DNA from: Oscillospiraceae bacterium
Lineage (GTDB): Bacteria > Bacillota > Clostridia > Oscillospirales > Ruminococcaceae
Length of the DNA: 64,000 bases
Direction of reading: 5' to 3'
NCBI GenBank assembly: GCA_016291435.1
Contig: JAEEXH010000005.1
Coordinates: 1 to 64,000, forward strand
Each line of letters begins with the position of its first letter. Position 1 is the first letter of the stretch. The notes beneath the pieces were generated by a model. The model ran no database searches. It had not been told where the DNA came from and saw nothing but the letters and a program-made list of their open reading frames with translations. Position numbers and translations under genes: made by a program. This document shows positions 264 through 11,620 of the stretch, one piece after another.

Positions 264-1118
264 TCAGCACTGCCGCCCGTGCGAGAGCAACGCCTCCGCA
301 TATGCGTTATCCGGCGCAGCATCGAAGCCCTCCGGGAGATATTCAGCGGGGATATAGCTCTGATAATCAAGATCATAGCTATAATTGCAGAAGATCAGCT
401 CGACATATGTGATCGTATTCTCCTGCCCCGGCGTCCCGATCGCGTAGACAAAGCCCTGATACGCATCTGCCGCCATCGCCAGCGGATCGCCCGCTCCCGC
501 AAAGCCTGTGACGCCGTAATAACCGATATAATCAGAAACGCCGAGTGCAGACAGCCGCGCGGTCTCTGCGGCATAATCCTCCGGCGAATAGTGCACGGTC
601 AGGTAACTCAGATACTGCGCATCCCACGGATCATAATAGACCATCTTGTATTCCTGCACATGCAGACCGGCAATCGGCGCAGACGGAAAAATGCGCTCAT
701 CCATGCCCCACTTGCTGCGATATTCCTCCTTTGCCTCCGCGCCCATATAATCTGCGTAATGCGCGGGGTCGGTATCCACAGAAGGCTCGCTCATGAGTCC
801 GCCGAGCCCCAGAAGCGTCATTGCGCCGCCCATCAGCATGAGGCGCAGGAGAAAGATTCCGCAAAGTGCAGCAGCCGTGATCGCGGCGGTCCTGACCGTC
901 AGCCTGCGCTTCTTCTTCTTTTCATACTTCGCGAATTCCTGTGCGGTATCCATACGGAACTGCACATCGGGTGTCTGCGCGGTCATCGCCTGCAATTCGG
1001 CACGGCAGCGCGCGCATTCGGCAAGATGTGTCTCCACAAAACCGCGGCTCTCTGCACTCACCAGATTCTCAGCATAGAGCGGCAGCAGATCGCGGATGAC
1101 TTCACACGGCAGATTCAT
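264..1118 (-). CDS. Anti-sigma factor with zinc-finger (zf-HC2-type) domain
   Basis: 284-residue membrane protein expected to hold the co-transcribed ECF sigma factor inactive. The first ~45 residues match the anti-sigma zinc-finger pattern: an early Cys, then H-x3-C-x2-C (HLAECARC). A Lys/Arg-rich stretch leads into a hydrophobic membrane segment at about residues 75-105, and the remainder is an extracytoplasmic domain rich in Tyr and acidic residues that I do not recognise. Its ATG overlaps the sigma-factor stop by four bases (ATGA), so translation is likely coupled. The signal sensed cannot be read from the sequence; the outward sensor domain suggests an envelope cue (inference). Confidence 0.85.
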   Translation of the reverse strand: MNLPCEVIRDLLPLYAENLVSAESRGFVETHLAECARCRAELQAMTAQTPDVQFRMDTAQEFAKYEKKKKRRLTVRTAAITAAALCGIFLLRLMLMGGAMTLLGLGGLMSEPSVDTDPAHYADYMGAEAKEEYRSKWGMDERIFPSAPIAGLHVQEYKMVYYDPWDAQYLSYLTVHYSPEDYAAETARLSALGVSDYIGYYGVTGFAGAGDPLAMAADAYQGFVYAIGTPGQENTITYVELIFCNYSYDLDYQSYIPAEYLPEGFDAAPDNAYAEALLSHGRQC

Positions 1119-1606
1119 TCCGATCCCTCCTTCATTTCAGCCTGTATCATAGATTTTGCGCGGTGAAATGTCACGCACGCCCAATGCTCCGATTTTTCAA
1201 AGAGCTCACCGATCTCGCGGAATGAAAGCTCCCCGAAAACGCGCAGAGAAAAGACCTCCTTATAGGGCTCACGCATCGCATGCAGCACGCGGTGAATGCG
1301 CCTTGCCGCCTCTTTGTCCGCGATCATGTCCGTCAGATCCGCATCGGGTGCGGGACAGGTCTCCGGAACCTCTCCGCCTGTCAGATGCTTTTGCTTCCGG
1401 CAGTGTGTCAGCCAGAGGTTCCGTGCAATGGAGCAAAGCCAGACGCGCAGCTCCGATTCGCCGCGGTACTGCCGGATCGCTTTCATCGCACGGAAAAAGG
1501 TTTCCTGCGTGAGCTCCTCGGCAAGGCTCTCATTTGCGGTCAGACCGCGCAGATAGCGGAACACAACATCGAAGTATTTGCGGTATGCCGCTTCAAACTC
1601 GTCCAT
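1115..1606 (-). CDS. RNA polymerase ECF-type sigma factor
   Basis: 163-residue sigma-70 family factor of the extracytoplasmic-function group. Region 2 is seen near residues 5-70 (AEELTQETFFRA, then RVWLCSIARN) and region 4 near 110-160 (FSLRVFGELSFREIGE followed by a helix-turn-helix). The short linker is typical of ECF factors lacking regions 1 and 3. The start at 1606 is chosen because AGGGAGGG lies six bases upstream; an in-frame ATG at 1735 has no ribosome site. It is followed at once by its anti-sigma factor. It is divergent from the lipid operon that begins about 200 bases away, which makes that operon a candidate target, but no ECF-type promoter could be identified. Confidence 0.92.
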   Translation of the reverse strand: MDEFEAAYRKYFDVVFRYLRGLTANESLAEELTQETFFRAMKAIRQYRGESELRVWLCSIARNLWLTHCRKQKHLTGGEVPETCPAPDADLTDMIADKEAARRIHRVLHAMREPYKEVFSLRVFGELSFREIGELFEKSEHWACVTFHRAKSMIQAEMKEGSE

Positions 1607-1751
1607 TGCTTTCCCTCCCTTCTGCTTATAAGACGCATGGCACAAAAAATAATCACAGGTTTTCTGAAAAAATTTTTTTTGCACGGGGATCGCCTGAATA
1701 TGAACAGTATAACACATCGGCTGCATGAAAATCAAGTATTCCTTCGGAGCG

Positions 1752-1780
1752 TTGACAAATATCAGAATATGTATTATAAT
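1752..1780 (+). promoter_or_regulatory. Consensus promoter of the lipid-type operon
   Basis: TTGACA at 1752-1757, 17-base spacer, TATAAT at 1775-1780: both hexamers perfect. Transcription would begin near 1787, which rules out the upstream in-frame ATGs at 1725 and 1779 as starts for the acyltransferase. Confidence 0.9.
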
Positions 1781-1805
1781 GTACTTTGTGAAACGGGGTG
1801 ATTAT

Positions 1806-2465
1806 TTGCATCACAAGCTGACTGCTTACCGCATACTCATGGGAATCGCAAGACCGCTCATGAGGCTGCTCTACCGCCCGCGCATCATCGGCGCGGAATA
1901 TATCCCCGCTGAGGGCGGCGCCGTCATCGCGGGCAACCATAAACACGCATTCGACCCGGTGCTTGTCAACACCGCAACGAAGCGCACGGTGCGCACACTT
2001 GCAAAAAAGGAGCTGCATGACGGCAGCTTCGGTTTTTTCTTCCGTGCGATTGCGTCGATCCCGGTCGATCTGCACGCAAAGCACAACCCTGCTGCGCTGG
2101 AAGCTGCGGTCGCCGCGCTGAAAGGCGGCTCGCTGATCAATGTTTCACCGGAAGCCGGACGGAACTATACCGATGAGCTGCTGCTTCCGTTCAAATACGG
2201 CGCGGTATCCATGTCTGCAAAAACCGGCGTACCGATCATTCCCTATGCGATCTCCGGCGACTACAAGCTCTTTGCAAAGCATCGCCTGACGATTCGGTTT
2301 TCCGCCCCGCTTTATGCAAAGGGCGAGGATCTCACCGATGCAAACGCCGCGCTCTATGACCGCATCGCAGAGCTGCTCCGCAGCATCACGGACGAGGAGA
2401 TCCTGCGGACAAAGCATTTCACCGAATTCAAGGATTGGAGTACAAAGCATGCACCGTCATCTTGA
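1806..2465 (+). CDS. PlsC-like 1-acylglycerol-3-phosphate acyltransferase family protein
   Basis: 219-residue acyltransferase of the PlsC/LPLAT family, which moves an acyl chain onto a lysophosphatidic acid-like acceptor at the membrane. The HX4D catalytic motif is H45-D50 (NHKHAFD), and the PEGTR-type block appears as PEAGR at 114-118, an unusual variant. The TTG start at 1806 is chosen since GGGGTGA lies just upstream and the promoter -10 box covers the earlier ATG. It is the first of five closely packed genes; the 3' end overlaps the acyl ligase by 17 bases. The true acceptor is unknown. The altered block III and the company of a radical SAM enzyme suggest it may not be the housekeeping PlsC. 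Confidence 0.85.
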   Translation: MHHKLTAYRILMGIARPLMRLLYRPRIIGAEYIPAEGGAVIAGNHKHAFDPVLVNTATKRTVRTLAKKELHDGSFGFFFRAIASIPVDLHAKHNPAALEAAVAALKGGSLINVSPEAGRNYTDELLLPFKYGAVSMSAKTGVPIIPYAISGDYKLFAKHRLTIRFSAPLYAKGEDLTDANAALYDRIAELLRSITDEEILRTKHFTEFKDWSTKHAPSS

Positions 2466-4083
2466 ATACCCGGAAGGGTCACTTTATGATTATCTTGCGG
2501 AGACTGCAAGGCAGTATCCGGCTTATACCGCGCTCAATTATTTCGGGCGGAAAATCCGCTTTTCTCAGCTCGTCAAAGAGATCGGCAGAACTGCTGCCGC
2601 GCTGAAGGCTGCGGGCGTGCAGAAGGGCGACAGCGTATCCGTCTGCCTGCCGAACATTCCCGAGGCGATCTTCCTTTTTTATGCGATCAATCAGATCGGC
2701 GCAGTCGCGAACATGATTCACCCGATGTCTGCGGAAAATGAGATCATCCGCTATCTTACGCTGACCGAAAGCAAATATCTCTTTGCCGTGGATCTCATTG
2801 CGGACAAGGTGCGGGCTGTCGCAAAGCAGGTGCCGCTCAGAGCAGCAGTCGGCGTGAGTGTCGCAGAAGGCATGCCGCTCATCACAAAGCTCGGCTACCG
2901 CATCACGCAGAAGCAGAAGCCCGATCTCACCGGGCTCATGCCGTGGAAGGCGTTTCTCGCAAAGGCATCTGCCTGCACCGGGGAAACCAACACGCACGCA
3001 GCCTCCGGAGATGTTGCTGCGATCCTTTACAGCGGCGGCACCACTGGCAAGCCGAAGGGCATCATGCTCACAAATTACAATTTCAACGCGCTTGCGGTTC
3101 ACAGCGTCGATGCCTGCGGCGGTCTTGCGCCCGGCGACAAGATGCTCTCCGTCATGCCGATCTTCCACGGCTTCGGGCTCGGCGTCTGCATCCATACGAT
3201 TCTGACGCTCGGCGGCACAGCAGTCATTCAGCCGAAATTCTCCGTGAAGAATTATCACAAGCTGCTGTTCAAATACCGCCCGGATATCATTGCCGGCGTC
3301 CCTGCGATCTATGAAAGCATGCTCGTGAGCCGCGCCTATGACGGAAAAGATCTCGGCTTCCTGAAATGTATCATCTCAGGCGGAGATTCCCTCTCGCCGA
3401 GCACAAAGCAGAAGCTCAATGCGATGCTCGCCGCACACGGCTGCAAAACGCATGTCCGCGAGGGCTACGGTCTTACGGAATGCGTCACGGGAAGCTGCCT
3501 GATGCCCGATCACTCGGACAATGTGCTGAGCGTCGGCCTGCCCTATGCGGATACATTCTACAAGATCATCAACAGCAAGACTGACGGGGAAATGCCCCTC
3601 GGCGAGACCGGCGAGATCATCCTGCGCGGTCCCTCCGTCATGAAGGGCTACTACAAGGAGCCGGAGGAGACCGCTGCCGTTCTGCGGAAGCGCGAAGACG
3701 GTCACACATGGCTCTATACCGGTGACCTCGGCTATATGGATGCCGACGGATTTGTCTACTTCAGGCAGCGGCTGAAGCGCATGATCGTCTCCGGCGGATA
3801 CAATATCTACCCGCAGAACATTGAGGAGATCATCAACCGCCACCCGCAGATCATCATGTGTGCGGTCGTCGGCGTGCCCGATCAGATTCTCGGCGAAAAG
3901 GTGCGTGCGTGCGCAGTCCCCGCAGAGGGTGCCGATACAGAAAAGCTGCATGACGAACTGATGGAGATGCTCCGCAAAGAAGTCGCTGTCTATGCGCTGC
4001 CGCGTGAGCTGCGGTTCGTGAAGGAGCTCCCGAAAACGCTGGTCGGCAAGATCGCATACAATGAGCTCAAGACGGAGGATTGA
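2449..4083 (+). CDS. AMP-forming acyl-CoA synthetase/acyl ligase
   Basis: 544-residue adenylate-forming enzyme that activates a carboxylic acid as acyl-AMP and passes it to CoA or a carrier protein. Core motifs are all present: the A3 loop (YSGGTTGKPKG) at 194-204, YGLTE near 339-344, YTGD at 423-426, the RMIVSGGYNIYPQNIE hinge, and the C-terminal catalytic lysine K534 in KTLVGKI. Full family length. The start at 2449 has GGAG eight bases upstream and lies inside the acyltransferase end. By family it could use medium or long-chain fatty acids. Placed next to an acyltransferase and a CDP-alcohol phosphatidyltransferase, it probably supplies the acyl chain for a lipid made by this operon (inference). 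Confidence 0.9.
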   Translation: MHRHLEYPEGSLYDYLAETARQYPAYTALNYFGRKIRFSQLVKEIGRTAAALKAAGVQKGDSVSVCLPNIPEAIFLFYAINQIGAVANMIHPMSAENEIIRYLTLTESKYLFAVDLIADKVRAVAKQVPLRAAVGVSVAEGMPLITKLGYRITQKQKPDLTGLMPWKAFLAKASACTGETNTHAASGDVAAILYSGGTTGKPKGIMLTNYNFNALAVHSVDACGGLAPGDKMLSVMPIFHGFGLGVCIHTILTLGGTAVIQPKFSVKNYHKLLFKYRPDIIAGVPAIYESMLVSRAYDGKDLGFLKCIISGGDSLSPSTKQKLNAMLAAHGCKTHVREGYGLTECVTGSCLMPDHSDNVLSVGLPYADTFYKIINSKTDGEMPLGETGEIILRGPSVMKGYYKEPEETAAVLRKREDGHTWLYTGDLGYMDADGFVYFRQRLKRMIVSGGYNIYPQNIEEIINRHPQIIMCAVVGVPDQILGEKVRACAVPAEGADTEKLHDELMEMLRKEVAVYALPRELRFVKELPKTLVGKIAYNELKTED

Positions 4084-4084
4084 C

Positions 4085-5422
4085 ATGGGGGAGAACAGAT
4101 GCTTTCTTCTTGTGCATCCCGAGATCTCGCGCACGAAATACAATTTCGCGGGCATCATCGACAATGAACCGCTGGAGCTTGAATTTCTCTGGACTGTTTT
4201 GCAGAACGCAGGCTTTGCGCCGCATATCTGGGACGGGCAGGTCGAAACACAGTCCTTTGCAGAGCGGCTCGCCGAATTGCAGCCCGCATTTGTCTATATC
4301 TGCGGCAGAACCCGGCAGGAGGGCTTCATGCTCGAATACTGCAAGGCCGCAAAGGAGCAGGGCGCCGTCACGATGCTCGGCGGGCTCCACGCACAGCACA
4401 ATTTCAGGCGGCTCATGCAGCCGTATGTCGATTATATTTTCACGGGATTTGATCCCGATGCCGTGCGGCAGACTGCCTGCGGCGCATCGCCCGAGAACCT
4501 TGACGGCATCTGCTGGCAGGCGGGCGGCGAATGGGTCACCCGTGCGGGAAAGCCGTATGATATCCGCAGGCTCCCGCGTGCAGACCGCACGCAGTTTTAT
4601 GCGCACACAGACCGCTACCGCTATCTGGAGCTCAGCCCCTGCGCGCATGTCCGCACGGCGTACTGCTGCCCCTATCAATGCAGCTTCTGCTCCAGAAACC
4701 GGCTGAACTGCGGCGTCTACACCGCACGCGATATCGCCGATGTGGTCGATGAGATCGCAGAGATTCAGTGTGACAACATCTATATCATCGACGACGATTT
4801 TCTATTTGACGAGAAACGCATCCGCACATTCATCCGCCTTGTGCGTGAGCGCGGGATCAAAAAGCGCTATGTCTGCTACGGCAGAGCGGATTTTGTTGCA
4901 TCGCATGCAGCACTCATGCGGGAGCTCAAGGAGATCGGCTTCTACTACATTTTAACAGGTCTTGAAGCGACCGATGACGCACATCTGGACCGCTACAACA
5001 AGAAAACGGATCTTGCCGCGAATGCCGAAGCCGTGCGCATCCTGAACGAGACCGGCATTCACATCATGGGCATGTTCATCGTCGATCTGGATTTCACCGC
5101 CAAGGACTTCCGCGCCGTCGCAAAATGGATCCGCAGGCATCATGTGCGCAATGCCGCAATTTCGATCTACACGCCGGAGATGAGTTCGCCGCAGTTTGAG
5201 GAATACCGCAGCCGCCTCATCACGGAGGATCCCGCGCACTGGGATTATCTGCATGTGGTCGCACGGCCGGAGCACATGAGCGTGAAGCGGTACTATATGC
5301 ACTATCACCTCCTTGTCGTGCGGCTCTTTCTGCGTGCCTGGCGGCAGGGCGTCTATGATTTTCTCGACTACGGATTTTTCATCCGCTCGATGCTGAAAAA
5401 TCTGTTCAGATTCGGAGGATAA
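4085..5422 (+). CDS. Radical SAM protein with B12-binding-like N-terminal domain
   Basis: 445 residues. An N-terminal Rossmann-type domain (about 1-150) has the layout of cobalamin-binding domains in B12-dependent radical SAM enzymes (HPEISRTK, later GGLHAQ), but no DxHxxG cobalamin ligand motif is visible. The radical SAM core begins near 190, with the [4Fe-4S] motif CxxxCxxC at C195, C199 and C202, followed by a TIM-barrel-like stretch containing IYIIDDDFLFDE and GLEATDD. GGAGG precedes the ATG at 4085. The setting among acyl-lipid genes suggests chemistry on an unactivated carbon of a fatty acyl chain, such as methylation or tail-to-tail coupling; this is inference. Confidence 0.88.
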   Translation: MGENRCFLLVHPEISRTKYNFAGIIDNEPLELEFLWTVLQNAGFAPHIWDGQVETQSFAERLAELQPAFVYICGRTRQEGFMLEYCKAAKEQGAVTMLGGLHAQHNFRRLMQPYVDYIFTGFDPDAVRQTACGASPENLDGICWQAGGEWVTRAGKPYDIRRLPRADRTQFYAHTDRYRYLELSPCAHVRTAYCCPYQCSFCSRNRLNCGVYTARDIADVVDEIAEIQCDNIYIIDDDFLFDEKRIRTFIRLVRERGIKKRYVCYGRADFVASHAALMRELKEIGFYYILTGLEATDDAHLDRYNKKTDLAANAEAVRILNETGIHIMGMFIVDLDFTAKDFRAVAKWIRRHHVRNAAISIYTPEMSSPQFEEYRSRLITEDPAHWDYLHVVARPEHMSVKRYYMHYHLLVVRLFLRAWRQGVYDFLDYGFFIRSMLKNLFRFGG

Positions 5423-5424
5423 CA

Positions 5425-6096
5425 ATGGCTGAACCGTATCAGAATCCCGTCAAAAAAATGATTCCCAGCAAGCTGGAGACCGGTTTCCAGCAGTTTCTCT
5501 ACAAGCATGCCGGAAAATATATCCCGAAGAATGCAACGCCGAATCAGGTGACAGCCGTCGGTGCGCTCGGCGGGTTGTTCGCCGTCATCATGACACTGCT
5601 GACGAACATCTCCCCGCTGTTTTTCATCGGCACGATCCTGGGTCTTGCGACACATCTGATCGCGGACGATCTCGACGGCTATGTCGCCAGAACGCGGCAG
5701 ATGTCCTCAAAGGCAGGCGCCTATTTCGACCTCATCACCGACGTGCTGTTCTCAACCTTCCTGCTGCTTGCCTTCGGTCTCACGCCCTATGTGCATCTTG
5801 CGCCCGCCGCATTTGCCGCACCGCTCTACGGCATCATGAATGTCACGATGATGAACTACATCATCTATTTCAATGAATTCCAGTTTCCGCGGCTCGGACC
5901 GATCGAAGCGCATCTCGGATACACCGCCTGCGCACTGATCGCAATGACCGTCCGCGACAGAGTGCTGTTCACGCTGTTCGGTTTGCCGGTCTTTGCATGC
6001 GATATTCTGATGGTGCTGGCGATGCTCCCGATGTATTATGAGATGATCCGGATGGCGATTGCGCTGTTCCGCCGTCTGAAAAAGGAAATATCATGA
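5425..6096 (+). CDS. CDP-alcohol phosphatidyltransferase family protein
   Basis: 223-residue integral membrane enzyme that joins a CDP-linked lipid to a small alcohol, or CDP-alcohol to a lipid, releasing CMP. The complete family signature is present: D81, D84-G85, A88-R89, then eight residues to G98, D102 and D106. Several hydrophobic segments follow. GGAGG lies before the ATG, two bases after the radical SAM stop. It could form phosphatidylglycerol-phosphate, phosphatidylinositol or a phosphocholine/ethanolamine-type lipid; the alcohol cannot be decided from the sequence. The operon links it to acyl activation and transfer. Confidence 0.88.
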   Translation: MAEPYQNPVKKMIPSKLETGFQQFLYKHAGKYIPKNATPNQVTAVGALGGLFAVIMTLLTNISPLFFIGTILGLATHLIADDLDGYVARTRQMSSKAGAYFDLITDVLFSTFLLLAFGLTPYVHLAPAAFAAPLYGIMNVTMMNYIIYFNEFQFPRLGPIEAHLGYTACALIAMTVRDRVLFTLFGLPVFACDILMVLAMLPMYYEMIRMAIALFRRLKKEIS

Positions 6097-6722
6097 ACGA
6101 AATCTTCATCGTCCTCATCCGTGCGCATACAGGTCTCGGCAGCATTGCACGGCGCATCACAGGGTATCCCTATACGCACATCGCAGTGAGCCTCGACCGC
6201 TCCCTTACGGATTTTGTGAGCTTCTCGCGGCGGTATCACAGCTTTCCTTTCGATGCCGGATTCATGCACGAATACCGTGATTATTACGCATTCGGCGACC
6301 ACAGCGATTTTGAAGCAAAGATCTTTCGTCTGCCTGTGACCGATGCGCAATTGAGGCGCATCCGCGCATTTCTCCGCAAATGCGAATCTGACCGGGAGCT
6401 GCGGTTCAATCTCTTTTCGATGGCAACGATGCCGCTGCTCGGCGGTTTCCGCATCCCGAAAGCGGAAAACTGCATGTCCTTCACAGCGCAGATCATCCGC
6501 ATGAGCGGCTGCGTGCAGATGCAAAAGCACTACTGGCGGTATTCTATCAAGGATATGGACCGGCTGCTCGGCAATCACCTGTTCTTCGAGGGAAAGCTCC
6601 GGCGTCTCCCCTCTACGCAATATAAACGCTACATGCAGCCCTTCTGCATCATCAAATATCTCCGCGATGCCGCAGCGCTCAACGGAACGCTCGCCCGCAG
6701 AATGCTGACACACCGCGTATAG
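6093..6722 (+). CDS. Permuted papain-like (YiiX/YaeF or NlpC/P60-type) cysteine hydrolase
   Basis: 209 residues. The pattern fits the permuted papain-fold group: an early catalytic His within YTHIAVSL (H29) and a later catalytic Cys in ENCMSFTAQ (C127). Members of this fold cleave amide bonds or act as lipid acyltransferases (LRAT/HRASLS-like); the lipid-handling branch would fit the operon. No signal peptide is evident. The ATG overlaps the phosphatidyltransferase stop by four bases (ATGA). It is the last gene before a terminator. The fold call is moderately secure; the substrate is unknown. Confidence 0.65.
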   Translation: MNEIFIVLIRAHTGLGSIARRITGYPYTHIAVSLDRSLTDFVSFSRRYHSFPFDAGFMHEYRDYYAFGDHSDFEAKIFRLPVTDAQLRRIRAFLRKCESDRELRFNLFSMATMPLLGGFRIPKAENCMSFTAQIIRMSGCVQMQKHYWRYSIKDMDRLLGNHLFFEGKLRRLPSTQYKRYMQPFCIIKYLRDAAALNGTLARRMLTHRV

Positions 6723-6759
6723 ATGCACTATGTTAAATATATGTGAAATTATGTGAAAT

Positions 6760-6782
6760 GCCGGGGAAAACCCGGCTTTTTT
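6760..6782 (+). terminator. Intrinsic terminator of the lipid-type operon
   Basis: GCCGGG (6760-6765), loop GAAAA, CCCGGC (6771-6776), then six T. It directly precedes the next promoter. Confidence 0.9.
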
Positions 6783-6783
6783 C

Positions 6784-6812
6784 TTGACTTTCCGGCATTT
6801 GCGCGCTATAAT
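6784..6812 (+). promoter_or_regulatory. Promoter of the Ca2+ ATPase gene
   Basis: TTGACT at 6784-6789, 17-base spacer, TATAAT at 6807-6812. The -35 box starts two bases after the T tract of the preceding terminator. Confidence 0.85.
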
Positions 6813-6861
6813 ATTATGGTTGACCCATCATTTTCCGACCGATAACGGAGGCATAAAAAAT

Positions 6862-9501
6862 ATGAAGCATTATCTCGAAACGGCGGACGCCGTACTGACA
6901 GAGCTGCACACATCCGAGGCAGGACTCACTGCATCTGAGGCGGCAGACCGTCTTGTGAAACAGGGCCCGAACCGGCTGGATGATCCCCCGAAGCCGACGC
7001 TGCTGGCACGCTTTCTCGAACAGTTCAGGAACCCGATGATTCTTGTGCTGCTGGCGGCTGCCGTGATCTCCGGCATCACGGGCGTGATTGAAGACGGCAG
7101 GCTGGATGCAGATGTGTTTATCATCCTGTTTGTTGTGCTCGCAAATGCCGTGCTCGGAGTCTATCAGGAGAACAAGGCAGAAGCCGCGATCGAAGCGCTT
7201 CAGGCAATGAGCGCCTCGCACAGCCGCGTGAAGCGCTCCGGCGAGGTGATTGTCGTTCCGAGCGCAGAGCTTGTCCCCGGTGATGTGATTGAGCTCGAAG
7301 CCGGCGACAATGTCCCCGCAGACTGCCGCCTGCTGACCGCCGCCGCACTCAAGGCAGAGGAATCGGCGCTGACAGGCGAAAGTGTCCCTGTCGATAAGGA
7401 TACCGCACAGCTCAGCGGCGGCGAGATCCCGCTCGGTGACCGCAGAAATATGCTCTATATGGGCAGCAGCATCGCCTACGGCAGAGCGGAGGCGGTTGTC
7501 ACCGCAACAGGCATGCAGACTGAAATGGGAAAGATCGCAGGCGCAATCGCAAATGCGGAGGATGACGAAACGCCGCTGCAAAAGAGTCTCTCGCAGCTCA
7601 GCAAGATCCTCTCCGTTGCAGTGCTCGTGATCTGTGTGCTGATCCTCGGCATCAGTGTTTTGCAGATGATCTCCGCACAGGGCAGAATCACGATGCCCGG
7701 CTTCCTCTCGTCCTTTATGATCGCCGTGAGCCTTGCAGTCGCCGCGATCCCGGAGGGTCTAGCAGCCGTTGTGACGGTCGTGCTCTCGATCGGCGTTACG
7801 AATATGTCAAAGCGCGGTGCGATTATCCGCAGACTCACCGCAGTCGAAGCACTCGGCTGTGCGCAGGTCATTTGCAGCGACAAGACCGGCACGCTCACAC
7901 AGAATAAGATGACCGTCGTGCAGGAGCGCACCGATGCACCCGCGCTGCTCGCAGAAGCTATGGCGCTTTGCTGTGATGCCGCGCTCAACACAGACGGCAG
8001 CGTCACGGGAGAACCGACCGAAGCGGCTCTGGTCGCTTACGCATATAAAAACGGGCTGAAAAAATATGAGCGCGAGGAAACCATGCCCCGCGTCGCGGAA
8101 GCACCGTTTGATTCACTCCGCAAGATGATGTCAACCGTTCATAAGAAGGACGGCGGATATGTGCAGTATACAAAGGGCGCACCGGATGAAGTGCTGCGCC
8201 GCTGCACGCAGATTCTGACAGAAAACGGCGTCCGCGAGATCACCACAGCGGACAAAGAGATCATCCTCACGCAGAATAAGGAAATGGCAGATCAGGCGCT
8301 GCGTGTGCTGATGGCAGCATACCGCACGATGGACAGCCTGCCGGAGGATACCTCACCTGCCGCACTCGAACATGATCTCATCTATATCGGCATGACCGGC
8401 ATGATCGACCCGGTGCGCCCGGAGGTCAAGGATGCGATCGGTCTCTGCCGCACGGCAGGCATCCGACCTGTGATGATCACCGGCGACCACCGTGACACGG
8501 CAGTTGCAATCGCGAAGGAGCTCGGAATTCTCGGCGAAGGGCAGAAGGCACTCACCGGCGCGGAGCTCAACGAAATCTCCGATGAGGAATTCGATGCACA
8601 TGTCGCGGATTACAGCGTCTATGCGCGTGTGCAGCCGGAGCATAAAGTGCGCATCGTCAATGCATGGCGCAAGCAGAACATGACAACCGCGATGACCGGC
8701 GACGGCGTCAACGATGCTCCCTCGATCAAGAGCGCCGATATCGGCGTCGGCATGGGCATCACCGGCACGGATGTCACGAAAAATGTTGCGGATATGGTGC
8801 TCACGGATGACAATTTCGCGACCATCGTCGGTGCAGTCGAGGAAGGCAGACGCATTTATGACAACATCCGCAAGGCAATCCAGTTCCTGCTCTCCAGCAA
8901 CCTCAGTGAGGTGCTCTGCATCTTCATCGCAACGCTCGGGCTCGGCAGCCTCACCAACGGCGCATTCCGTATTTTCAGCCCGGTGCACCTGCTCTGGATC
9001 AATCTCATCACCGACTGCTTCCCCGCTGCCGCACTCGGCATGGAGAAAGCAGAGGACGGCATCATGAAGCGGAAGCCCCGCAGCAGCAGCGCGCATATCT
9101 TCTCGGACGGCCTCGGCATCAACCTGCTCTGGCAGGGTATGCTGATTACCGCACTGACGCTCATCTCCTATGTGATCGGCGCAAAGACCTCGCCGGAAGC
9201 CGGCACGACAATGGCATTCATCACGCTCTCCTGCTGCGAGATGCTGCACTCTTGGAATATGCGCAGTCTCAAAGGCTCCGTCTTTACGATCAAACACCGC
9301 AATCCCGCGCTGCTCGGCTCCATTATGCTTTCCGTCGCGTTGACACTGCCGGTGCTGCTGATTCCCGCACTCCGCAATATCTTCTCTCTTGTGCCGCTGA
9401 CAGTTTCAGAATATCTCACTGCGGCAGGGCTTTCTGTCCTGATCCTGATTACTGTCGAGATTGTCAAGGCAATCACCCGCACAGCAAACAAACAGGCGTA
9501 A
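6862..9501 (+). CDS. P-type (P2) calcium-transporting ATPase
   Basis: 879-residue cation pump of the SERCA/PMCA-like group. Visible landmarks: N-terminal cation-transporter domain, TGES at 171-174 (actuator), PEGL in the fourth membrane helix, the phosphorylated aspartate D340 in SDKTGTLTQNKM, KGAPDE in the nucleotide domain, TGDGVNDAPS in the hinge, and the C-terminal helices (NLITDCFPAAALGMEK). Together these place it among Ca2+ exporters rather than heavy-metal or K+ pumps. The start at 6862 follows ACGGAGG; an earlier in-frame ATG lies inside the promoter. Single-gene unit ending at a strong terminator. Confidence 0.93.
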   Translation: MKHYLETADAVLTELHTSEAGLTASEAADRLVKQGPNRLDDPPKPTLLARFLEQFRNPMILVLLAAAVISGITGVIEDGRLDADVFIILFVVLANAVLGVYQENKAEAAIEALQAMSASHSRVKRSGEVIVVPSAELVPGDVIELEAGDNVPADCRLLTAAALKAEESALTGESVPVDKDTAQLSGGEIPLGDRRNMLYMGSSIAYGRAEAVVTATGMQTEMGKIAGAIANAEDDETPLQKSLSQLSKILSVAVLVICVLILGISVLQMISAQGRITMPGFLSSFMIAVSLAVAAIPEGLAAVVTVVLSIGVTNMSKRGAIIRRLTAVEALGCAQVICSDKTGTLTQNKMTVVQERTDAPALLAEAMALCCDAALNTDGSVTGEPTEAALVAYAYKNGLKKYEREETMPRVAEAPFDSLRKMMSTVHKKDGGYVQYTKGAPDEVLRRCTQILTENGVREITTADKEIILTQNKEMADQALRVLMAAYRTMDSLPEDTSPAALEHDLIYIGMTGMIDPVRPEVKDAIGLCRTAGIRPVMITGDHRDTAVAIAKELGILGEGQKALTGAELNEISDEEFDAHVADYSVYARVQPEHKVRIVNAWRKQNMTTAMTGDGVNDAPSIKSADIGVGMGITGTDVTKNVADMVLTDDNFATIVGAVEEGRRIYDNIRKAIQFLLSSNLSEVLCIFIATLGLGSLTNGAFRIFSPVHLLWINLITDCFPAAALGMEKAEDGIMKRKPRSSSAHIFSDGLGINLLWQGMLITALTLISYVIGAKTSPEAGTTMAFITLSCCEMLHSWNMRSLKGSVFTIKHRNPALLGSIMLSVALTLPVLLIPALRNIFSLVPLTVSEYLTAAGLSVLILITVEIVKAITRTANKQA

Positions 9502-9507
9502 CAGTTA

Positions 9508-9545
9508 CCGCCCGGACAAAGAATTGTCCGGGCGGTGCTTTTCTG
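9508..9545 (+). terminator. Intrinsic terminator after the Ca2+ ATPase
   Basis: A perfect 12-bp stem (CCGCCCGGACAA, 9508-9519, with TTGTCCGGGCGG, 9524-9535), four-base loop, then a T-rich tail. Confidence 0.92.
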
Positions 9546-9606
9546 TTTATAAACTAAATTTAATCCAAAATAACTTCAAAAGGCTTTATAAAATTTTGAA
9601 AAAGGG

Positions 9607-9634
9607 TTGATTTTTTTGTGATTTGTGCTATAAT
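9607..9634 (+). promoter_or_regulatory. Promoter of the LacI-sensor diguanylate cyclase
   Basis: TTGATT at 9607-9612, 16-base spacer, TATAAT at 9629-9634, preceded by an A/T-rich stretch. Confidence 0.8.
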
Positions 9635-9694
9635 ATAAAATAACAGAGTATGCGGAAGCACATCTATCCGCATCACGCAGACAGGGGTGGTTAC

Positions 9695-11620
9695 ATGAGT
9701 CAGGGCAGGATCCGGAATATCGCTGTGATGGTCGCCGGAACAGACGAAGAGTATCAGAGCAGCATTCTGAGCGGTATCAAGGAAGCAGCAAAGCTCTGCA
9801 ATTTCAATATCTCCGTGTTTGCCTGCTTCGGCGGGGTGCTCGCCAATGCAGAGTATGACAGCGGCGAATATGCGATTTATTCGCTGATCAATTATTCGCT
9901 TTTCGACGGCGCAATCCTGCTGACAAACACCATCGAGGATGCCGCATCCCGCGCACAGATTTTCAAGAATCTGCTGGATACCGGAATCCCGGCAGTCGTA
10001 TTTGACAGCAGCGAATATCCGGCGTTCTATAATATCCGGATCGACAATGCAGCCGCAATGCGGCAGATCGCCGAGCATGTGATCACGGTGCACGGCGCGA
10101 AGACCATTGACTATATCTCCGGCCCGCAGGATAACCCCGAGGCAAGGGAGCGCCTGGAAGCATTCCGTGAGGTGCTCACCGCACACGGAATCCCGTTGGA
10201 GGAAACACGCATTCACTCCGGCGACTTCCGCCCGACAGGCGGCAAGCTCGCTGCTGAGCAGATTCTCACGAGCGGTCTGCCGCTCCCGGATGCCGTCATC
10301 TCCGCGAATGACGCGATGGCACTGGAAGCCGTCAGCGTTTTGACCCGGAACGGCATCCGTGTGCCGGAGGATGTGATCGTCACCGGCTTCGACAACACCT
10401 ATCTCGCGCAGCATCACTATCCCGCCCTGACCACAGTCGGACGGCCGCTTGCAGAAGCAGGAAAGGCTGCCTGTGAACTGCTGAACCGTGTGTTCAGCGG
10501 CGAAAGCTGCGGGAAAACCGTCACGCTTCAAGCGTCTCCCGTCTATATGGAGAGCTGCGGCTGCAAGACAAGCGCAGACCTCGATATCAAGAGTTACAGA
10601 TCTGCGGCATACAGCACGATTCAGCGGTTCCGCGCAGACACCTCCATGCTGAGCCGCACAACGCTGGCACTCGCCCTCAATGAGACCCCCGAGGACAGCA
10701 TCCGCATTCTTGCGCAGTATCTGCATGAAATCGGCTGTGAGCAGTGCTGCATCTGTCTCTGCGAAAACTGGGAAAACGCTTTCTTTGACAACGGCGACGG
10801 TACGCATTCCGAAGCGGAAAACAATCAGACATACACGGAACACATGTCTGCGCCGCTGATCTGGATGGAGGGGCGCGTCCGCGATGTCCCGCAGTTCAAC
10901 CGCAGCGATATGTACCCGCTCCCGCTTGAGACCGGCGGCAATATCAGCTATTTCTTCCCGATGCATTTCCGCGACAGATGCCTTGGCTACTACATCTTCA
11001 CGAACACCGATTTTCCGACACAGAGCCTGCTCTGTCACATGCTGATGATCAATATCAGCCATTCCTTCGAGAACATCCGCAAGCTGATCAATCTGAATGA
11101 TGCCATCCGCGAGCTCGACCGGCTCTATGTCATGGATCCGCTCTGCGGCATCTATAACCGCAACGGCTTCCTGCGGCTTGCCGATATAATCTTCAGAGAA
11201 TGCTGTGAATCCGGCAAACCGCTGATGATCTCCTTCATCGACATGGACGGCCTCAAACTCATCAATGACAATTACGGACATGATGAGGGTGATTTTGCGC
11301 TGCGCAAGCTCGCCGCTACAATCTCGGAGAACTGCACCGGCAATCAGGTCTGCGCACGCTTCGGCGGTGATGAGTTCATTGTGATCGGCAGCGGCTTCAC
11401 CGCAGAGGAGGCAGAGCAGTTCGAGCAGCGGTTCCTGCGCCAGCTCTCCGATATTAACGGCGTCATCCGCAAGCCCTATGAGCTCGGCGCCAGCATCGGC
11501 ACCTACATCACAAAGGTCACGCCGGAGATGAAGCTCTTCCCGCTGATCTCAAAGGCGGATCAGATCATGTACGAGCAGAAAAAACGCAAGCGCACCTCGC
11601 GCTATCTCAGAAAAGTATAA
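9695..11620 (+). CDS. Diguanylate cyclase with LacI-type ligand-binding sensor
   Basis: 641 residues. Residues ~5-285 are a periplasmic-binding-protein-like domain of the LacI regulator type (IAVMVAGTDEEYQSS; PDAVISANDAMALEA; VTGFDN), yet no DNA-binding helix-turn-helix and no signal peptide precede it, so it is a cytoplasmic sensor. A region with paired cysteines (SCGCK) and a middle domain follow. The C-terminal GGDEF domain has an intact active site at 557-561 (RFGGDEF), so it should make c-di-GMP; no RxxD inhibitory site is seen where expected. GGGGTGG precedes the ATG at 9695. By family the ligand is likely a sugar, which would tie carbohydrate to c-di-GMP. Confidence 0.9.
   Translation: MSQGRIRNIAVMVAGTDEEYQSSILSGIKEAAKLCNFNISVFACFGGVLANAEYDSGEYAIYSLINYSLFDGAILLTNTIEDAASRAQIFKNLLDTGIPAVVFDSSEYPAFYNIRIDNAAAMRQIAEHVITVHGAKTIDYISGPQDNPEARERLEAFREVLTAHGIPLEETRIHSGDFRPTGGKLAAEQILTSGLPLPDAVISANDAMALEAVSVLTRNGIRVPEDVIVTGFDNTYLAQHHYPALTTVGRPLAEAGKAACELLNRVFSGESCGKTVTLQASPVYMESCGCKTSADLDIKSYRSAAYSTIQRFRADTSMLSRTTLALALNETPEDSIRILAQYLHEIGCEQCCICLCENWENAFFDNGDGTHSEAENNQTYTEHMSAPLIWMEGRVRDVPQFNRSDMYPLPLETGGNISYFFPMHFRDRCLGYYIFTNTDFPTQSLLCHMLMINISHSFENIRKLINLNDAIRELDRLYVMDPLCGIYNRNGFLRLADIIFRECCESGKPLMISFIDMDGLKLINDNYGHDEGDFALRKLAATISENCTGNQVCARFGGDEFIVIGSGFTAEEAEQFEQRFLRQLSDINGVIRKPYELGASIGTYITKVTPEMKLFPLISKADQIMYEQKKRKRTSRYLRKV

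What the first reader, a model, noticed from the sequence alone, without database searches (positions are those of the whole stretch)
1806..6722. Five-gene radical SAM lipid operon
Seen: acyl-AMP ligase, PlsC-like acyltransferase with a PEAGR variant block, radical SAM enzyme, CDP-alcohol phosphatidyltransferase and a permuted papain-like protein overlap or nearly touch, under one consensus promoter with one terminator. Known: each family acts on or near acyl lipids, and radical SAM enzymes can methylate or couple unactivated acyl carbons. Inference: a pathway for an unusual membrane lipid, perhaps a methyl-branched or tail-linked (diabolic-type) acyl chain on a non-standard headgroup.
Basis: partly seen in the sequence, partly recalled or inferred. 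Interest (0 to 1): 0.72.

Follow-up and report, generated by a model that had tools for sequence, protein, structure and literature searches.

The report
Phosphonolipid operon with radical SAM enzyme
Five adjacent genes in a Ruminococcus-like anaerobe travel, in relatives, with the genes that make carbon-phosphorus bonds, so they most likely build a membrane lipid whose head group is a phosphonate and which a B12/radical enzyme further modifies.

Summary
The five genes, their packing, a perfect sigma-70 promoter and one terminator are confirmed. Twenty genomes share the block in the same order; three lack the acyl ligase. Following the neighbourhood changed the reading. In 12 of 20 loci phosphonate genes adjoin the operon (PEP mutase, phosphonopyruvate decarboxylase, iron alcohol dehydrogenase or a PntC-like cytidylyltransferase), and one locus (L098) holds the whole pathway. 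The decarboxylase occurs in 15 of 20 genomes, including the window's own, where the phosphonate genes sit on another contig. The CDP-alcohol transferase is nearest choline/ethanolamine phosphotransferases, which move a CMP-activated head group onto diacylglycerol. Best reading: a phosphonolipid pathway, probably of 2-hydroxyethylphosphonate, whose B12 radical SAM enzyme modifies the head group (Fom3-like) or the lipid core. Phosphonolipid clusters are predicted elsewhere, but I found no description of this version. The product has not been seen, and the radical SAM substrate is inferred.

The parts
1752..1780 (+). sigma-70 promoter TTGACA-17-TATAAT, 25 nt before the first start codon
   Evidence: 12/12 match; 9/12-or-better sites expected 5.4 in shuffles, 11 found
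1806..2465 (+). PlsC-like acyltransferase, TTG start, NHKHAFD (HX4D) motif, PEAGR block
   Evidence: PF01553 E 4.6e-21; orthologues 46-63% identical, H45/D50 invariant
2449..4083 (+). acyl-AMP (fatty-acid) ligase; missing in 3 of 20 loci
   Evidence: PF00501 E 1.1e-78, PF13193
4085..5422 (+). B12-binding radical SAM enzyme (C195-x3-C199-x2-C202)
   Evidence: PF02310, PF04055; fold matches TsrM, MgmA, AprD4, OxsB, CysS, TokK; orthologues 53-68%
5425..6096 (+). CDP-alcohol phosphotransferase, proposed CMP-phosphonate:diacylglycerol transferase; D81xxD84G85xxA88R89x8G98x3D102x3D106 invariant
   Evidence: PF01066; motif invariant in 15 orthologues; profile best matches CEPT1/CPT1 structures, E 1.7e-7
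6093..6722 (+). permuted NlpC/P60-like cysteine enzyme (H29, C127), proposed acyl hydrolase or acyl transferase
   Evidence: no Pfam match; model pLDDT 88.9; 3kw0 prob 0.99, E 0.026
6760..6776 (+). intrinsic terminator hairpin followed by T-run

Best explanation
The operon is the lipid-assembly branch of a phosphonolipid pathway. Precursor genes (beside the operon in relatives, on contig C16 of this genome) turn PEP into phosphonopyruvate (PEP mutase), phosphonoacetaldehyde (Ppd), probably 2-hydroxyethylphosphonate (HEP; iron alcohol dehydrogenase) and its CMP ester (PntC-like and/or Fom1-like cytidylyltransferase domains). The CDP-alcohol transferase then moves the phosphonate from CMP onto diacylglycerol, as choline/ethanolamine phosphotransferases do with phosphocholine. 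The PlsC-like enzyme, with the acyl ligase where present, supplies or repairs acyl chains; the permuted NlpC enzyme removes or transfers an acyl group. The B12 radical SAM enzyme most likely adds a methyl group; first choice is the head-group carbon at the CMP-phosphonate stage, as Fom3 does, second choice the acyl chain or glycerol core. Shown: gene content, order, conservation, motifs, linkage and co-occurrence with phosphonate genes. Inferred: HEP rather than AEP, diacylglycerol as acceptor, and the roles of PlsC, ligase, NlpC and radical SAM. Estimates: phosphonolipid 0.72 (this is the confidence given below); given that, radical SAM on the head group 0.45, on acyl chain or glycerol 0.35, other 0.2.
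For: Five-gene order kept in 20 genomes. Phosphonate genes adjoin the operon in 12 of 20 loci: L013, L014, L020 (divergent), L017, L025, L027, L098 (PEP mutase and Ppd, or their fusions), L018, L019, L021, L022, L023 (PntC-like NTP transferase only). L098 holds plsC, radical SAM, CDP-alcohol, NlpC, LysE-type protein, NTP-CyltD-PepM fusion, Fe-ADH and Ppd in one 8-kb run. PEP mutase and Ppd scores exceed the curated cut-offs in this genome (397 vs 320 and 465 vs 312 bits). Ppd above cut-off in 15 of 20 operon genomes; PepM confirmed in 14 of these, not searched in G949. In the family sample 4 of 5 operon genomes have PepM against 22 of 194 others, Fisher p 0.001, uncorrected for relatedness. 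Transferase profile is nearest CEPT1/CPT1 (1.7e-7) rather than PS synthase (0.002). Fom1/Fom3 precedent for CMP-HEP methylation by a class B radical SAM enzyme (PMC8158854). The operon's radical SAM clade has private invariant Arg/Tyr/His residues against its sisters, suggesting a polar or anionic substrate.
Against: Five operon genomes (G195, G204, G206, G207, G210) show neither PepM nor Ppd; G195 breaks off just after the operon, the others are draft MAGs, but true absence is not excluded. In the window's genome the phosphonate genes are unlinked and lie next to LicD, so they may serve a glycan. Fe-ADH matches the phosphonate Fe-ADH model best but far below its cut-off (143 vs 424 bits). NCBIfam ranks archaetidylinositol phosphate synthase first for the transferase, below cut-off. 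Nearest radical SAM relatives lie in clusters without PepM. No lipid has been observed.
Confidence: 0.72

Rival explanations
1. Phosphonolipid pathway, but the radical SAM enzyme acts on the acyl chain or glycerol core (methyl branch or similar), not on the phosphonate head group.
For: Its sister enzymes in other Bacillota lie beside a PS-decarboxylase-like gene and no PepM, so the shared theme is phospholipid, not phosphonate. Three acyl-handling genes share the operon. The C-terminal helices are amphipathic. The HEP glycan cluster of this genome has no radical SAM gene.
Against: Fom3 shows CMP-HEP itself is a class B radical SAM substrate (PMC8158854). Radical SAM is kept where the acyl ligase is lost (L018, L022, L098). 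Operon-specific invariant residues are mostly polar or aromatic.
Confidence: 0.25
2. The operon makes a Kennedy-type phospholipid with a phosphate head group (phosphocholine- or phosphoethanolamine-like) and the adjacent NTP transferase is LicC-like; linkage to phosphonate genes reflects only shared CMP chemistry.
For: Three loci (L018, L019, L022) have the NTP transferase next to the operon but no PepM or Ppd in the genome. The transferase resembles choline/ethanolamine phosphotransferases. LicC and PntC are related enzymes (PMC6697681).
Against: No choline-kinase-like gene was recognised beside those loci among the neighbours I read (not searched by profile); 15 of 20 genomes encode the phosphonate route and seven loci link it to the operon directly.
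Confidence: 0.13
3. One reading: tail-linked, membrane-spanning (diabolic-type) lipid made by the radical SAM enzyme.
For: A radical SAM gene among acyl-lipid genes; archaeal Tes is a radical SAM protein (PMC8941075).
Against: Profile search of the PDB (up to E 10) and fold search list B12 radical SAM enzymes and generic radical SAM folds, no tetraether synthase.
Confidence: 0.03

Closest known systems
Predicted phosphonolipid clusters of Burkholderia and lichen Nostoc (pepM, ppd, AEPT, NTP transferase, CDP-alcohol phosphatidyltransferase; PMC5987646, citing Yu et al. 2013)
   Same: PEP mutase, Ppd, CMP activation and a CDP-alcohol transferase
   Different: Those use an AEP aminotransferase and a 2-oxoglutarate/Fe oxygenase; here an iron alcohol dehydrogenase, B12 radical SAM, PlsC, acyl ligase and permuted NlpC. 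Product unproven in the held text of both
Fosfomycin pathway of Streptomyces (Fom1 CyltD-PepM fusion, Fom2, FomC, Fom3)
   Same: CyltD-PepM fusion, Ppd, a dehydrogenase, and a class B radical SAM enzyme; CMP-HEP as likely intermediate
   Different: Ends in a soluble antibiotic; no transferase to lipid. Orthology of the radical SAM to Fom3 was not testable here
PntC phosphonyl-tailoring and LicD glycan clusters (PMC6697681)
   Same: MobA-like NTP transferase that activates a phosphonate as its CMP ester; the window's genome has such a LicD-linked cluster on C16
   Different: LicD (glycan) acceptor step there, CDP-alcohol transferase (lipid) here
Aas-type acyl-ACP synthetase plus 2-acyl-lysophospholipid acyltransferase
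   Same: PlsC and AMP-ligase pair; NCBIfam lists the fused enzymes below cut-off for PlsC
   Different: Two separate genes here, and the ligase is dispensable
Multi-radical-SAM clusters of Bacillota with PS-decarboxylase-like gene (L138, L139)
   Same: Contains the nearest relatives of the operon's radical SAM enzyme
   Different: Three to five radical SAM paralogues, no PepM, PlsC or CDP-alcohol orthologue in the stretches read

Membership tests
Phosphonate (C-P bond) biosynthesis pathway | PEP mutase above curated cut-off in the same genome | tested here: met
   TIGR02320 397 bits vs 319.55 on contig C16; unlinked to the window operon
Phosphonate (C-P bond) biosynthesis pathway | Phosphonopyruvate decarboxylase | tested here: met
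   TIGR03297 465 bits vs 312.5; in 15 of 20 operon genomes
Phosphonolipid cluster | CDP-alcohol transferase with CMP-phosphonate supply in one locus | tested here: met
   Met in relatives L013, L014, L017, L025, L027, L098; in the window's genome both halves exist but apart
Phosphonolipid cluster | Phosphonate found in lipid | not testable with these tools
   Needs 31P NMR or lipid MS
Class I CDP-alcohol phosphotransferase | DxxDGxxARx8GxxxDxxxD motif | tested here: met
   Invariant in 15 orthologues
Class B (B12) radical SAM enzyme | B12-binding domain plus CxxxCxxC radical SAM domain | tested here: met
   PF02310 35.4 bits (cut-off 32.1), PF04055 54.2; fold matches. Cobalamin binding itself untested
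Fom3 (CMP-HEP methyltransferase) | Orthology to Fom3 and methylation of CMP-HEP | not tested
   No Fom3 sequence or model was available in the libraries used
HpnR, BchE, PhpK radical SAM families | Score above curated cut-off | tested here: not met
   121 vs 650, 126 vs 481 and 67 vs 600 bits
Tetraether / tail-coupling synthase | Nearest sequence or fold relative | tested here: not met
   No such entry among profile matches up to E 10 or the 50 fold matches shown; no direct comparison with a Tes sequence was made
Permuted NlpC/P60 (YiiX/LRAT-like) | Permuted papain fold with His before Cys | tested here: met
   H29 and C127 invariant; 3kw0 prob 0.99, TM 0.53, E 0.026; third catalytic residue not assigned

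The most novel reading that the evidence does not exclude
Rumen and gut Clostridia make a membrane lipid with a C-methylated phosphonate head group (2-hydroxypropylphosphonate type), methylated by a B12 radical SAM enzyme at the CMP stage: fosfomycin-like chemistry used to build membranes.
Probability: 0.32. Interest if true: 0.82.

Novelty: new variant of a known kind. Interest (0 to 1): 0.62.

Why it matters
Most bacterial phosphonate clusters are thought to decorate cell surfaces, yet almost nothing is known of how phosphonolipids are made (PMC6697681). This operon is a compact, conserved candidate with its own transferase and a radical SAM tailoring step, present in culturable rumen and gut anaerobes, so the question becomes directly testable. 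It predicts a lipid class whose phosphorus phospholipases could not remove, and it gives a context to an unannotated permuted NlpC family and to a clade of B12 radical SAM enzymes of unknown function.

Tried and rejected
Single-sequence PDB search with the radical SAM protein found nothing. Rfam and tRNA scans of the window were empty. Sphingobium plasmids are hit by both the radical SAM and the CDP-alcohol queries, which looked like an independent pairing; in the two loci read (L102, L103) no radical SAM gene lies beside the CDP-alcohol gene. Streptomyces plasmid radical SAM hits have no PepM nearby. The tandem radical SAM array of G097 was first counted as an operon relative; it is a different cluster. 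A first translation with wrong frames for two genes was discarded. The main survey of phosphonate genes (Yu et al. 2013) is not held, so prior mention there cannot be excluded.
Full report
Observation. The five ORFs are real, intact and tightly packed on the + strand at 1806-6722, behind a perfect TTGACA-17-TATAAT promoter and ahead of a GC-rich terminator. Pfam confirms PlsC, AMP-ligase, B12-binding plus radical SAM, and CDP-alcohol transferase. The fifth protein has no Pfam match in any of 15 orthologues above a chance level. Its model (pLDDT 88.9) resembles the permuted papain-like NlpC protein 3kw0 with probability 0.99, although E is 0.026. That family has a hydrophobic pocket, and YiiX was found with a bound fatty acid (PMC3142127).

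Conservation. The block is present in 20 genomes: the window's, four of the same family (G160, G118, G195, G086), thirteen GTDB contigs (L011-L023), and two of other families in the class (G949, G897). The order is constant. The acyl ligase is missing in L018, L022 and L098; L012 and L020 are cut by contig ends. The module is rare: radical SAM orthologues in 5 of 199 family genomes (the sixth hit, G097, is a different cluster) and CDP-alcohol orthologues in 1 of 394 order genomes.

The neighbours. Clustering all genes around these loci brought up two further conserved groups. Profiles identify them as PEP mutase, phosphonopyruvate decarboxylase, a MobA-like (PntC-type) NTP transferase, a Fom1-type cytidylyltransferase domain and an iron alcohol dehydrogenase. 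They follow the operon in L017, L025, L027 and L098, stand divergently upstream in L013, L014 and L020, and are present as the NTP transferase alone in L018, L019, L021, L022 and L023. L098 holds plsC, radical SAM, CDP-alcohol, NlpC, a LysE-type membrane protein, the NTP-CyltD-PepM fusion, Fe-ADH and Ppd in one 8-kb run.

This genome. The window's own genome carries the same fusion, Fe-ADH and Ppd on contig C16, behind a LicD gene. The precursor supply therefore exists here, unlinked, and may also or mainly feed a glycan. The Fe-ADH, and no aminotransferase recognised in that 16-kb stretch, point to hydroxyethylphosphonate. PGAP names the alcohol dehydrogenase of a related Segatella copri plasmid cluster phosphonoacetaldehyde reductase. 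The Fe-ADH itself scores well below the cut-off of the phosphonate model.

Co-occurrence. Ppd above its cut-off is present in 15 of 20 operon genomes; PepM was confirmed in 14 of these and not searched in G949. In the family sample 4 of 5 operon genomes have PepM against 22 of 194 others, p 0.001 without correction for relatedness. The five negatives lack both genes: G195, whose contig ends right after the operon where its congener G118 has PepM, and G204, G206, G207 and G210, all MAG contigs. Assembly gaps or a real second use are both possible. Physical linkage in several divergent lineages is the stronger argument.

Transferase. Fifteen orthologues keep the whole CDP-alcohol motif, and their profile matches choline/ethanolamine phosphotransferase structures best. 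Those enzymes take a CMP-activated head group to diacylglycerol (established knowledge), which fits a CMP-phosphonate donor. The margin over an inositol-phosphate transferase (4mnd) is small, so this assignment is suggestive only.

Radical SAM enzyme. It is a class B (B12) radical SAM protein whose predicted fold matches TsrM, MgmA, AprD4 (highest TM, 0.77), OxsB, CysS and TokK. Since AprD4 is a dehydratase, methylation is likely but not certain. Fom3 methylates CMP-HEP in fosfomycin biosynthesis (PMC8158854), a direct precedent for head-group methylation. In a tree the operon enzymes form a 100/100 clade inside a group from multi-radical-SAM clusters, and two of the near relatives lie beside a PS-decarboxylase-like gene. 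That argues for a lipid or lipid-precursor substrate in general. Against those sisters the operon clade has 29 private invariant residues, among them five Arg, six Tyr and one His, which suggests a shift to a more polar or anionic substrate. I lean to the head group, weakly.

Novelty. Clusters with PepM, Ppd, NTP transferase and CDP-alcohol transferase are predicted to make phosphonolipids in Burkholderia and Nostoc. I found no description of one with a B12 radical SAM, PlsC, acyl ligase and permuted NlpC enzyme, in a library that omits most subscription journals. I therefore call it a new variant of a known, largely unproven kind. What is shown is genomic; the lipid and every enzyme activity remain to be demonstrated.

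Noticed in passing
L138 (9039-17661), L139 (5115-15927), L137, L141, L142, L028, L106: A conserved Bacillota cluster of 2-5 B12 radical SAM genes with two GNAT/FemAB-like proteins and usually a class I methyltransferase; in L138 and L139 also a PS-decarboxylase-like gene and a FeeM-like N-acyl amino acid synthase. It holds the nearest relatives of the operon's radical SAM enzyme; product unknown.
   Followed up: partly
L030 (own genome G000:C16:22000-38000), 1050-10652: LicD-linked phosphonate cluster with a tri-domain NTP transferase-cytidylyltransferase-PEP mutase fusion, Fe-ADH and Ppd: two cytidylyltransferase domains of different families in one protein.
   Followed up: partly
L143, Segatella copri DSM 18205 plasmid NZ_CP085933.1, 7308-11574: A cytidylyltransferase-PEP mutase about 80% identical to that of this Bacillota genome sits in a Bacteroidota polysaccharide cluster on a plasmid, suggesting transfer between phyla.
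   Followed up: no
G000:C25:38760-39206 and 76 of 391 class genomes: Distant relatives of the permuted NlpC-like protein are widespread in the class, one more in this genome; they have no Pfam family under the operon orthologues' search.
   Followed up: no
window 264-1735, - strand: Divergent ECF-sigma-like and zinc-finger/anti-sigma-like gene pair (by eye) next to the operon promoter; relation to the operon not examined.
   Followed up: no
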